Assembly (NCBI GenBank): GCA_963971425.1
Contig: OZ020517.1
Location: 24,066,462 to 24,130,461 of the forward strand
DNA length: 64,000 nucleotides
Origin: Bryoerythrophyllum caledonicum
Taxonomy: Eukaryota; Streptophyta; Bryopsida; Pottiales; Pottiaceae
Direction: 5' to 3'
In this document: positions 49,437-63,840 of the stretch, in pieces
Position numbering within the stretch: position 1 is the stretch's first letter
Layout: each line of letters opens with the position of its first letter
Notes under the pieces: model-generated
Told to the model about the DNA's origin: nothing
Seen by the model: only the letters and a program-made list of their open reading frames with translations
The model's database searches: none
Program-made: the position numbers and the translations under genes

Positions 49437-49843
49437 GGGAGAGAGTCATTTTTGAAGAGAGAGATGGCACTTGAGAGAGCTCCGTAAATATAGGTGAGGA
49501 GAGACTGGGGAGTATTGTTGCAACTTGAAGGATTAAGGCAACATGTGAGCTGGGAACTGTTGTGGTCCTCACTTATGACTGAGATTTGCAACTTGTGTAG
49601 GACTTACGAATGCTTTGTGTTGGACAGTACTTGAGGACACTATATCTCACTTTGTTGTGTGTAAGTAAATTTTGTCATTAGATTTGGATAGTGGGCATCT
49701 GAGCATGGGACCCAAAGTGTTGGCGTCCAGATCTAGTGACATCTTTTACTGTGAACCTGCAAAGCAAAGATTTAGTACAGAAAAGTCTGTTACATTCACC
49801 TACACATCCTCCCCAGTCTCTCTCACAATCCTAGTAGATACCA

Positions 49844-52800
49844 ATGCTTAGAATTACACACTACACACCATCACAATTAGAAAATAGTCCATTACAGAAT
49901 AGCATCCCCCACCTAACATCCATACCACCCATCAAGTGTACATACACAGATTACCAACATCTATATAGCCTACCTATACTATGTATGCAGAAGTATGTAC
50001 AACTTCTCCAAAAACAGCACCATCCTACTGCCATACAAGATTACGACTTTAACAATCATCAACAACAAAAGTTGACTTCGACACAACGTGCCTTGTATCA
50101 CAAGCTGAACTATGTAGATCATCTTGCCTTGAGTTATGATTTAAAATATAGAGCCTACTTGCTGATGTTCTACTTGGCAGATAAATGTCCGGTTCTCTGC
50201 AGAATATGCTTCAGCGCCAGAGCGTTTACACCCAGCACATGCCCAAGACAGCAAAGCAGGACGCAGTTTCACAAAATGATGAATGGAGATTACATTAACT
50301 ACCAAATGTTGCTAACAAGTTTATTGATTTCTGTATGCAAGGTTTGGATAGAACTGAAAGACGAATTAAAAACCTGGGACGAGTCAACTGATTACATCGA
50401 TTATGAACTAACAAACTCTGTCTCCAAAACAGGTTTGCAACAGTTATGCCATCCAGAGAGTCCTGCAAGACTTCGATCGCCTCATTCTTGGACTCGCAAC
50501 AAGGAGCGACGCCCTGCAGATTCAAAGACGAGCCATCAATACAACACAGAGAATCCGCAGCTCGACACCAACGCCCCAATACTCCAAGTAAGTTCCCTAA
50601 ACTCCCTATCAAAAAATTCTTTTTTACAATTACAGACTTACATGCAGGACACGCACAATTACCACCAAACAAACACCAACAGCCACAAACATTACCCTGG
50701 TCGACACAACTCAATGCCACAACAAATCAACGCAAGCTACTCATCGTCCCTCACCAACCAAATCCCATGCAAGGTAAAAAATTTCACCCTAACTTTGATT
50801 TCTTACACCTTAACCCCAAACGCATGCAAGTGGCCCAATCGTGCAGATCAATCAACCCTTGCCAGGAACAACAAAGCACAAGATGACAATATTGTACACC
50901 TCAACGAATCTAGAAGTGGACAAAAAACCAACTGTGGACAGCATCTACACCAAATCTCCCAAGATCAGGATTACCTTAGATCTGAATCAGGCAGTACCCT
51001 TCACGCAACCCAGCACACCATCGGCACAGCTGTTCTCCTGATCCCCGCCGAATCATACAACTTGCGCCCCGCCGAATCGCGGAATCTGATCTCCACCGAA
51101 TCGCCTATCGTCGTCTCCGAATCAAGCAACAATAGCCCACAAGCCCGCGCCGCCCCTGGATCAAAACGCGAAATTGTCAAAACACGCAACCCCCTGCTCA
51201 CCACCAAATCAGCACCCTACCAGGTACACCTTTACACCGTAACTCTACTTCCACTAATCTTACCTCCAGCCACAAATGCAGATCCACCAACCCCAGAAGG
51301 AAACAACAAAACACAAGACGACGGACCCCGCCAACTAGATAAAGTCAGCCGCACTTACCGCCTACACGGTGGAATTACATCTTGCGACACCACGACTTTC
51401 AGCACCAAACCGCCAATCGCCGCAAGCAGCGCTGATGACCGCAGGTGCTCCATCGAATCCCGCAACACACTACGCGTACAAGCAACCTCAAAGTCCACGC
51501 ACGCAAGCTCCAGATCTGCGTTCGAAGTCGACAAACTCACGCAAGCCTCCTACAGATTCGGCGATAAACACCAACACAGATCAACGTGGATTATTTACCC
51601 ACTTCCTGATACCCCAACTCCCACCCCTTGCTATAAGACTCCACATAGACGATCACAGAACCCATCGTGTTTGCGTTTCCCCCTCATACATACACTAGCT
51701 GTCTCCTACACCCTGCCACACATTACTCATAGAATTATCCGAGTGACGGTGAGAGTATGCAGCGACGCGACTTGTACGCCCCCTATCTACAGATCGCTCC
51801 CTAAACCGCTAACTGTTTGTTCTCTGTATCAACTCTCATTAGTTAGTTCCTCGCATCGCTCCTCTCACATATTCACCAGCAAGACAGTAGAGAAAGTTAG
51901 TTCCTCGTACATAACACAAACCCCTGTTAGTAGACTCACCTCGAAAACAACTCCATCTCACAGTCACAGAAGACGGTGCACGAAGGGCCACCACGAACCA
52001 CCACAGATCACGACACAGAGCACACAACACACAGCCAGCGCCGCCCGAGACAGCCACCGCCCCAACAGTAATATTCAAACCCTAGTCGCGGAGAGCCAGA
52101 CTGATGTGCAACAGCCGGAGTGCTGCCAGTGGGAGATAAGCGACGGAGGCCGAGAGCATAAACAAGCAAGCCGAACCCACAGCGCGCCCCGCATCGCCCG
52201 CACGCACACCCTAACCGTGGAGAGACAGACCCGCGCGCAGCAGCCGGAGTGCCACCAGTGGGCGAGAATCGGCGGGAGTAAACAGTGTAGACACGGAGGC
52301 CGAACTCACGACACAGCCCGCATCGCCCGCACGCAGAAGTTGAAGAGCTGCCAGTGGATGAGAATCGGCGGAGGCGAAGATCATAACCGCGTAAGTCGAA
52401 CCTACGGCGCCCACGACGCCCGCATCGCCCACACTCCAGTGCCGTTGAGGGCACTCACAGCCAAGCGACAAGAAAGGCCAGTTAATCAGCTGACAACTCG
52501 AGGGCGAAGGCCGAGGTGGGACCATACCCTGAATCGACCCATATCAAGTTCAAGTTCTGCACCAGCAAGTCCCAGATCAAACAGCTCAACCAGGGAGTAC
52601 GGCCAGCTCCGAAATCCAACCTCATCAGGTACTTCTCCCTTCTATTATTTTCAAATCAATGTGATTTATTTTGCAAACCTCCGCGTGTTATTCTATTGCT
52701 TAACAATTAAAATCGTTTTTTGGAAAGGTGACCATTGCTTTGGCACCTTCCATAAATGTATACACATGTGTTGCTTTAACAATAAATATCAATATCTTTG

Positions 52801-52900
52801 TCTAAATGTTAAAATTTACACTTGGAATTATAGGCTAGACATATATAAACTCACTCTATCAATATATTCCTCTTTACATAATCTTAAAACCTTCTCATAA
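49844..52900 (+). CDS. long ORF in the retrotransposon's 5' region, unknown
   Basis: A frame of 1018 codons without a stop, in the 3.5 kb between the element's 5' end and ORF1. It is too long to be chance at ordinary composition, but it is Ser/Thr/Pro/Gln-rich and contains DNA-level repeats: a block around 50.85-50.90 kb recurs near 51.27-51.32 kb (CAGATC..CAACC..GGAA.CAACAAA.CACAAGA), and CAGCCGGAGTGC..CCAGTGGG-type units recur at about 52.11, 52.24 and 52.34 kb. Several intron-like GT...AG segments also fit. It may be a real leader ORF, or an untranslated promoter region built from repeats that happens to stay open. No family is recognised. Confidence 0.35.
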   Translation: MLRITHYTPSQLENSPLQNSIPHLTSIPPIKCTYTDYQHLYSLPILCMQKYVQLLQKQHHPTAIQDYDFNNHQQQKLTSTQRALYHKLNYVDHLALSYDLKYRAYLLMFYLADKCPVLCRICFSARAFTPSTCPRQQSRTQFHKMMNGDYINYQMLLTSLLISVCKVWIELKDELKTWDESTDYIDYELTNSVSKTGLQQLCHPESPARLRSPHSWTRNKERRPADSKTSHQYNTENPQLDTNAPILQVSSLNSLSKNSFLQLQTYMQDTHNYHQTNTNSHKHYPGRHNSMPQQINASYSSSLTNQIPCKVKNFTLTLISYTLTPNACKWPNRADQSTLARNNKAQDDNIVHLNESRSGQKTNCGQHLHQISQDQDYLRSESGSTLHATQHTIGTAVLLIPAESYNLRPAESRNLISTESPIVVSESSNNSPQARAAPGSKREIVKTRNPLLTTKSAPYQVHLYTVTLLPLILPPATNADPPTPEGNNKTQDDGPRQLDKVSRTYRLHGGITSCDTTTFSTKPPIAASSADDRRCSIESRNTLRVQATSKSTHASSRSAFEVDKLTQASYRFGDKHQHRSTWIIYPLPDTPTPTPCYKTPHRRSQNPSCLRFPLIHTLAVSYTLPHITHRIIRVTVRVCSDATCTPPIYRSLPKPLTVCSLYQLSLVSSSHRSSHIFTSKTVEKVSSSYITQTPVSRLTSKTTPSHSHRRRCTKGHHEPPQITTQSTQHTASAARDSHRPNSNIQTLVAESQTDVQQPECCQWEISDGGREHKQASRTHSAPRIARTHTLTVERQTRAQQPECHQWARIGGSKQCRHGGRTHDTARIARTQKLKSCQWMRIGGGEDHNRVSRTYGAHDARIAHTPVPLRALTAKRQERPVNQLTTRGRRPRWDHTLNRPISSSSSAPASPRSNSSTREYGQLRNPTSSGTSPFYYFQINVIYFANLRVLFYCLTIKIVFWKGDHCFGTFHKCIHMCCFNNKYQYLCLNVKIYTWNYRLDIYKLTLSIYSSLHNLKTFS

Positions 52901-52993
52901 AATAGCGACCATTCTAATGATATTTCTAATAAGGATGCATGGTTATATTTTCTTCAAAAATACATTAAAAATCATCCAATTTACCTATATTTT

Positions 52994-62822: not shown

Positions 62823-63081
62823 CTTGTTCTTAGCTTTAATACCAAACATCGATTCCTTCATTTTATAAAATGCTTAGTTCACTTGATACAATTAGCCTGT
62901 GAGCTTCAGTTGAACTTCTTTTCTCTTCAAACTTATATTTTGTATTAAAAAAATAAAAAAATAAAAAATAAAAAATAAAAAACTCATTTCAATCAATTAA
63001 TTAACCCTCTGCATCCCAATATTTTTCCTCGCTTTCAAAAGAAATACTTCTCCCTTCTTCGGTCACTTATTACTTCCCATA
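62823..63081. other. 3' untranslated sequence of the retrotransposon
   Basis: AT-rich, with an A-rich run (about 62946-62982) between the accessory ORF and the structured 3' module. Confidence 0.5.
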
Positions 63082-63206
63082 GTGTCTACCCTCGAAAGAG
63101 GGAAGTAGTTCCCTACCACTTATCCTTGTCTTCTGGGCATAGATATAGTGAATGGAACGAACAGACACTTCATTCACGCCGACCTTCTGAGAAGGCCGGA
63201 GTTCTT
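63082..63206 (+). repeat. structured 3' module of the retrotransposon (copy 3)
   Basis: GTGTCTACCCTCGAAAGAGGG to CCGGAGTTCTT. Predicted fold: an outer stem GTGTCT/AGACAC; inside it a CCCTC-GAAA-GAGGG hairpin and a long hairpin starting TTCC and ending GGAA; after it CCTTC-TGA-GAAGG. Shared with the small insertions at 9501 and 43995. The position directly before the tail suggests it is the reverse transcriptase's recognition structure. Confidence 0.75.
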
Positions 63207-63840
63207 ACTACTACTACTACTACTACTACTACTACTACTACTACTACTACTACTACTACTACTACTACTACTACTACTACTACTACTACTACTACTACTA
63301 CTACTACTACTACTACTACTACTACTACTACTACTACTACTACTACTACTACTACTACTACTACTACTACTACTACTACTACTACTACTACTACTACTAC
63401 TACTACTACTACTACTACTACTACTACTACTACTACTACTACTACTACTACTACTACTACTACTACTACTACTACTACTACTACTACTACTACTACTACT
63501 ACTACTACTACTACTACTACTACTACTACTACTACTACTACTACTACTACTACTACTACTACTACTACTACTACTACTACTACTACTACTACTACTACTA
63601 CTACTACTACTACTACTACTACTACTACTACTACTACTACTACTACTACTACTACTACTACTACTACTACTACTACTACTACTACTACTACTACTACTAC
63701 TACTACTACTACTACTACTACTACTACTACTACTACTACTACTACTACTACTACTACTACTACTACTACTACTACTACTACTACTACTACTACTACTACT
63801 ACTACTACTACTACTACTACTACTACTACTACTACTACTA
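63206..63840. repeat. (TAC)n microsatellite, about 210 uninterrupted units
   Basis: A perfect trinucleotide run of about 634 bp forms the 3' tail of the retrotransposon and is followed directly by the target-site duplication. The long open frames across it (poly-Thr, poly-Leu, poly-Val, poly-Ser) are artefacts of the repeat. Confidence 0.97.

What the first reader, a model, noticed from the sequence alone, without database searches (positions are those of the whole stretch)
49437..63839. A 14.4-kb plant non-LTR retrotransposon with an unusually rich domain set
The 11-bp target-site duplication shows that ORF1, a 2A motif, APE endonuclease, RT, methyltransferase-like domain, RNase H, CCHC, a possible restriction-like endonuclease and an accessory 3' ORF belong to one element. 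Most LINEs are 4-7 kb with two ORFs. I know of no plant element described with this combination; the nearest known relatives may be Dualen/RandI elements of green algae.
Basis: partly seen in the sequence, partly recalled or inferred. Interest (0 to 1): 0.9.

Follow-up and report, generated by a model that had tools for sequence, protein, structure and literature searches.

The report
Moss LINE with two endonucleases, cap-enzyme-like domain
A moss genome carries a giant 'jumping gene' family that combines two DNA-cutting enzymes, a ribosome-skipping peptide and a relative of an mRNA-cap-modifying enzyme, and the full-length copies examined each begin with a different short piece of foreign sequence.

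Summary
Window 49437-63838 is one non-LTR element between 12-bp target-site duplications; ten fetched relatives share its body, and nine of nine copies with both ends read have an 8-13 bp duplication. The host is a moss (one gene). Order: leader, ORF1, 2A, APE, RT, PCIF1-like domain, RNase H, CCHC, restriction-like endonuclease (RLE), ORF3, 3' hairpin, (TAC)n. ORF1 core, ORF2 domains and ORF3 are under purifying selection. The window copy itself is dead: 549 bp are missing from its RT.

New: in 12 of 12 copies that keep the constant 5' start (G-ATG), 22-77 nt unlike those of any other copy lie between it and the duplication. The one truncated copy read has none. Their source could not be searched.

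The parts
49425..49436 (.). 5' target-site duplication TATTGTATGTAG
49437..49462 (+). copy-specific 5' leader (26 nt), unlike the leaders of the 11 other copies read
49463..49487 (+). constant start of the body (G-ATG) and micro-ORF MALERAP*, found as M...(R/G)AP* in 12 of 12 copies
49844..52900 (+). 5' part of ORF1: fast-evolving, avoids stop codons (4 seen, 43.2 expected, 10 copies against c10)
53189..54879 (+). conserved core of ORF1 (about 549 aa, dN/dS 0.09), no Pfam or PDB match of weight; start at MSHAHAAS is inferred; frame broken in the window (two overlapping ORFs)
54882..55226 (+). linker before 2A in the ORF2 frame: not conserved in sequence, but free of stops (0 seen, 21.2 expected)
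55227..55250 (+). 2A (StopGo) motif DIEQNPGP
55982..56656 (+). APE-type endonuclease domain (range carried over from c10)
57572..58205 (+). reverse transcriptase, left part (start carried over from c10)
58205..58206 (.). point of a deletion: 549 bp present in all 10 relatives, including YADD, with one A in their place
58251..61739 (+). second half of ORF2 (after the deletion)
59367..60038 (+). PCIF1/CAPAM-like methyltransferase-fold domain, NPPF replaced by AHPH (range carried over from c10)
60264..60692 (+). RNase H
61047..61706 (+). CCHC zinc motif and R2-type restriction-like endonuclease (RPD...E...D...K; range carried over from c10)
62148..62822 (+). ORF3, 224 aa, same length in 11 of 11 copies (c14b has an internal stop), dN/dS 0.11, no Pfam match
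63178..63200 (+). 3'-terminal hairpin
63206..63838 (+). (TAC)n tail, about 211 units
63839..63850 (.). 3' target-site duplication

Best explanation
This is a full-length but inactivated copy of a multi-copy moss LINE of the Dualen/RandI type: APE endonuclease before the RT, RNase H and an R2-type restriction-like endonuclease after it. It also has a PCIF1-type domain that is widespread in its clade, an N-terminal 2A and a third ORF. Inferred cycle: the RNA is translated into ORF1 protein (RNP-forming, as in other LINEs). Ribosomes reach the ORF2 frame within or just after the 37-nt ORF1/ORF2 overlap, and 2A releases the enzyme. APE and/or RLE nick the target. The RT recognises the 3' hairpin, copies from the (TAC)n end (target-primed reverse transcription, shown only by tails and duplications) and, on reaching the RNA 5' end, copies a further 22-77 nt of another molecule, so that each new full-length copy starts with a different leader. 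The PCIF1-like domain most likely no longer methylates here and works as an RNA-binding module, plausibly for capped 5' ends. Shown: one element, anatomy, selection, duplications, folds of models, leaders that differ between copies. Inferred: the entry into ORF2, the role of the PCIF1-like domain, the origin of the leaders.
Against: No Dualen sequence could be compared, so the RT clade is untested. The RT tree holds only three outside references, on long branches, and the element's own place in it has support 83 and is drawn open. APE falls just below the Pfam cut-off in the window and is missed in c10. In the profile search the PD-(D/E)XK half of the RLE alone did not reach significance against R2 (i-E 27, 0.08 and 0.099 in the three R2 rows shown); only the CCHC half did in one row (1.5e-5), and the fold match carries the rest. 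The loss of MTase catalysis is read from alignments only. No canonical -1 slippery heptamer was seen by eye in the overlap. The structure models rest on 23 and 17 sequences.
Confidence: 0.82

Rival explanations
1. A separate, undescribed LINE clade with both endonucleases, sister to or derived from R2-like elements, rather than Dualen itself.
For: The relatives form one side of a branch against the R2 and L1 references (support 100); RT is closer in score to R2 (7.3e-30) than to L1 (2e-20); no paper seen in the listings describes a PCIF1-like domain for Dualen.
Against: The defining pair of endonucleases plus RNase H is met; RT relatives occur in green algae (Haematococcus, Parachlorella), the group in which Dualen was described; some relatives carry cysteine-protease-type domains (OTU, Josephin), recalled as a Dualen trait.
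Confidence: 0.2
2. The leaders come from template jumping: after reaching the 5' end of the LINE RNA, the RT copies the 3' end of any nearby RNA fragment, with no cap recognition involved.
For: R2 RT is known to jump end to end (titles cited in PMC3636483; listing of PMC8857657). Copies that reach the constant 5' start have leaders (12 of 12); the truncated one read has none (0 of 1).
Against: All 12 have a leader, within 22-77 nt; occasional jumping would also leave copies without one.
Confidence: 0.45
3. The leaders are host first exons joined by splicing (trans-splicing, or cis-splicing from an upstream promoter) to the body at G-ATG.
For: A sharp, constant joining point; the leader puts the micro-ORF at a normal distance from the cap. 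If the constant G belongs to the leader, 6 of 12 leaders end in AG.
Against: With the joint placed before the G, only 3 of 12 leaders end in AG; a daughter copy would lose the acceptor site each time; trans-spliced leaders of the known kind would be the same in all copies.
Confidence: 0.2
4. The leaders are filler DNA from end joining at the 5' junction.
For: Plants make filler DNA (recalled).
Against: Filler should also occur at truncated copies (0 of 1 read) and be absent from some full-length ones (0 of 12 lack it); the joint is always at the same body nucleotide.
Confidence: 0.1
5. The PCIF1-like domain is an active adenosine methyltransferase that marks the element's own or host mRNA caps.
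For: Same fold as PCIF1; purifying selection (0.23); 36 of 98 rows keep N-P at the motif.
Against: Here the motif is AHPH, also in 4 of 4 other host loci read. NPPF itself occurs in 0 of 98 rows; the commonest form is NPEY (29 of 98).
Confidence: 0.12

Closest known systems
Dualen / RandI non-LTR retrotransposons (Kojima and Fujiwara 2005, known here from passages in PMC3636483, PMC4640811, PMC3747384, PMC8226300, and recall)
   Same: Both APE and RLE, RT, RNase H; 3' repeat tail that is not poly(A); green lineage
   Different: Moss host; 2A; PCIF1-like domain (not seen described for Dualen in the searches made); ORF3; tail (TAC)n instead of (ATT)n or (CTATTT)n (PMC3747384)
R2 non-LTR retrotransposons
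   Same: RT closest by score among solved structures; CCHC plus restriction-like endonuclease of the same fold
   Different: Here also APE, RNase H, PCIF1-like domain, several ORFs and different target sites (that R2 lacks these is recalled)
Plant L1 LINEs
   Same: APE, RT, RNase H (RNase H of plant L1: PMC4640811)
   Different: RLE, 2A, PCIF1-like domain, ORF3, size, (TAC)n tail. A review (PMC9033089, passages) lists L1 and RTE as the plant LINEs
PCIF1 / CAPAM cap-specific m6Am methyltransferase
   Same: Fold of the methyltransferase core
   Different: Catalytic NPPF is AHPH; part of a retrotransposon polyprotein
2A-bearing LINEs of animals and trypanosomes (Odon 2013, seen only as a reference in PMC12846837; trypanosomes recalled)
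   Same: 2A motif near the N-terminus of the enzyme ORF
   Different: Other clades and hosts

Membership tests
Dualen/RandI | APE-type endonuclease N-terminal to the RT | tested here: met
   Profile of nine against PDB: L1 endonuclease 1.4e-19; single copies at or below the Pfam cut-off
Dualen/RandI | Restriction-like (PD-(D/E)XK) endonuclease C-terminal to the RT, with CCHC | tested here: met
Dualen/RandI | RNase H | tested here: met
   Pfam 6.6e-13
Dualen/RandI | RT groups with Dualen RTs | not testable with these tools
   No Dualen sequence held; the tree has only R2 and L1 as outside references
PCIF1/CAPAM | Fold of the methyltransferase core | tested here: met
PCIF1/CAPAM | Catalytic NPPF motif | tested here: not met
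   AHPH aligned to NPPF; NPPF in 0 of 98 rows; AHPH in 4 of 4 other host loci
PCIF1/CAPAM | Binding of SAM and capped RNA | not testable with these tools
   needs protein
2A / StopGo | D(V/I)ExNPGP | tested here: met
   DIEQNPGP, intact in 9 of 10 aligned copies; c3 has P to L
2A / StopGo | Separation of the two products during translation | not testable with these tools
   needs translation assay
LINE by target-primed reverse transcription | Variable-length target duplications, 3' tail, 5' truncation | tested here: met

The most novel reading that the evidence does not exclude
Probability: 0.1. Interest if true: 0.95.

Novelty: new variant of a known kind. Interest (0 to 1): 0.74.

Why it matters
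Dualen elements have been taken to mark the switch from RLE to APE in LINE evolution (PMC4640811), and the passages seen report them from green algae and cryptophytes (PMC8226300, PMC12747079); here a multi-copy family lives in a moss, with a domain set that proves widespread in its clade. A conserved cap-methyltransferase relative with an altered active site inside LINE ORF2 suggests a role of cap recognition in LINE life that can be tested. Leaders that differ between insertions pose a precise question (where does the RNA or cDNA get its 5' end?) that one whole-genome search of the leaders could answer. A paper of 2026 (PMC12846837, passages) found no evidence for natural StopGo use by plant viruses; this is an apparent natural case in a plant mobile element.

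Tried and rejected
Nested or composite insertion: rejected. A spurious 5' ORF: dN/dS alone (0.59-0.73, control frames 0.62-1.03) would have rejected it, but stop avoidance (4 seen, 43.2 expected; control frames 64 of 79.8 and 76 of 93.8) and indels in multiples of three (63 of 140, against 3 of 112 in three non-coding controls) speak for translation. Against this, indels in ORF2 are multiples of three in only 14 of 47 and in the ORF1 core in 0 of 3.

Search of the protein collection with the PCIF1-like region alone: 385 candidates, none at E <= 0.01. ORF1 core and ORF3 against Pfam, and ORF1 core against PDB: nothing of weight. 5' ribozyme: none reported by Rfam at E <= 5 (four weak microRNA matches). 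Local origin of leaders: no match beyond short chance ones in each copy's own fetched region. 3' hairpin: conserved, but covariation comes almost wholly from one old copy. Papers: no paper in the listings (chosen terms, open-licence library) was seen to describe a PCIF1 domain in a retrotransposon; one search gave nothing useful.

Slips of mine: I labelled P0102 as Haematococcus; it is an unnamed protein, so that group has 19 named rows, not 20. In one search the lengths printed for c1 and c6c rest on arbitrary starts and are not used.
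Full report
WHAT WAS CHECKED. Its xylosyltransferase gene (window 3267-4544, minus strand) is closest to an unnamed protein (84%) and, among named ones, to Ceratodon purpureus (76%), Physcomitrium patens (75%) and Sphagnum (58-61%). I take the host to be a moss; this rests on one gene. A 2-kb query from the RT region gave 74 matches after scoring 40 of 3265 candidates, a lower bound.

ONE ELEMENT. Ten relatives were fetched and compared. All ten align along the 3' two thirds (c6b lacks a stretch near the end of ORF2; c14a and c6c hold insertions); eight also carry the 5' part. 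With the window, 9 of 9 copies whose two ends were read have (TAC)n followed by 8-13 bp that recur upstream. c1 is 5'-truncated with an 11-bp duplication; none was found for c6c. The eight full-length relatives measure about 13.6-14.8 kb (approximate ends).

THE WINDOW COPY IS DEAD. 549 bp present in all ten relatives are missing from its RT, with one A in their place; the YADD box is gone, and ORF1 has stops and a frame shift. Its nearest relative among those fetched is 98.8% alike.

ANATOMY. In c10 the frames run 1674 codons (ORF1), 2480 (ORF2) and 284 (ORF3 stop to stop; 224 from a conserved ATG). dN/dS against c10 is 0.07-0.26 for every part from the ORF1 core on, except the linker before 2A (1.12) and the stretch before ORF3 (0.73). 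The 5' two thirds of ORF1 change fast (0.59-0.73), yet avoid stops tenfold and keep frame at indels more often than non-coding controls. The linker before 2A likewise has 0 stops where 21.2 are expected. Since no ATG upstream of 2A is shared by all copies (by eye) and the two frames overlap by exactly 37 nt in six copies, ORF2 is probably entered from ORF1 by a shift or by a restart in or near the overlap. This is inference.

THE ALTERED ACTIVE SITE. PCIF1's NPPF aligns with AHPH. Among 98 rows with a long enough domain (c10 included), 36 have N-P, 24 H-P, 14 N-V (all Haematococcus) and 24 other pairs; NPEY is commonest (29), NPPF occurs in none; many rows are near-copies. Four of four other loci of this genome read AHPH. 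The domain is kept by selection while its catalytic motif is not; a binding role is my inference.

RELATIVES. The RT region found 204 proteins at E <= 1e-10 among 7054 candidates; 120 were listed, most without a name, named ones from Haematococcus and Parachlorella. Among these 120 plus c10's ORF2, the order APE-RT-PCIF1-RNaseH-RLE is complete in 71, the PCIF1-like domain is found in 103, and 2A N-terminal of APE in 16, c10's included. The one Parachlorella protein shows only APE and RT. Some relatives carry OTU, Josephin or PHD domains. In an RT tree the R2 and L1 references stand apart (support 100); the moss element falls with P0004, P0005 and P0051 (support 83, drawn open). In the host genome all 150 scored PF12237 matches (of 2614 candidates) pass the cut-off; 33 of the 150 lie in an open frame of 3087 codons, suggesting a second, recently active family (not fetched).

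COPY-SPECIFIC LEADERS. In the nine copies read from both ends the body starts at the same G-ATG, and 24-64 nt without similarity between copies lie between it and the duplication. Ten further copies were sampled by short stretches; three gave both ends (C7b, C2b, C3d). For C2b and C3d I set the duplication by eye and checked it: in C2b the tail ends TACTACTAG, and in C3d the duplicated stretch differs in the length of an A run. In all, 12 of 12 copies that contain the constant start have leaders of 22-77 nt; the best pairwise score is reached in 58 of 200 shuffles. The window copy and its 98.8% relative have unrelated leaders, so a leader is not simply handed down. The one truncated copy read has none. 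All 12 bodies begin with a micro-ORF M...(R/G)AP*, with three further in-frame lengths. Seven of the ten extra samples did not show both ends and are not counted.

WHAT IT MEANS. The best reading is a Dualen-type LINE that copies a foreign sequence at the end of reverse transcription, by plain template jumping or with help from a cap-binding domain. The source of the leaders would decide, but the genome search did not answer in twelve attempts with one leader and one attempt with another.

NOVELTY. By kind it is a Dualen-like LINE; new, as far as the searches made show, are the moss host, the PCIF1-like domain widespread in the clade, ORF3, the natural 2A in a plant element and the leaders. 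The papers consulted were seen as passages only; the founding Dualen paper is not held.

Noticed in passing
window 63206-63838: The (TAC)n tail has about 211 units here, against a handful in the other copies: a microsatellite that probably grew after insertion.
   Followed up: partly
G000 (e.g. C8:15561129-15561545): 33 of 150 scored PCIF1-domain matches lie in open frames of exactly 3087 codons with equal scores, a sign of a second, recently spread family. P0015 is also 3087 aa; whether it is the same was not tested.
   Followed up: no
window about 49490-49610 and the other full-length copies: The conserved 5' UTR holds a splice-donor-like AGGTGAG and, about 110 nt on, an acceptor-like TGTAGG (seen by eye).
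   Followed up: no
c3 copy, positions 964-2651 (G000:C3:16293000-16312000, minus strand): An older, about 69%-like relative ends just upstream of copy c3 with a TTC instead of TAC tail.
   Followed up: partly
window 54880-54900 and other copies: After the ORF1 stop 9 of 10 aligned copies read TCCACCATCGCG in the ORF2 frame: a strong start context around ATC, a possible non-AUG start (context recalled).
   Followed up: no
window 46782-48710 (minus): A FAD-linked oxidase (berberine-bridge-like, recalled) lies about 0.7 kb from the insertion.
   Followed up: no
P0004, P0015, P0050 and others: Relatives carry OTU, Josephin, Ulp1, PHD or DNA methylase domains beside the common set, so the clade collects host-type domains.
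   Followed up: partly
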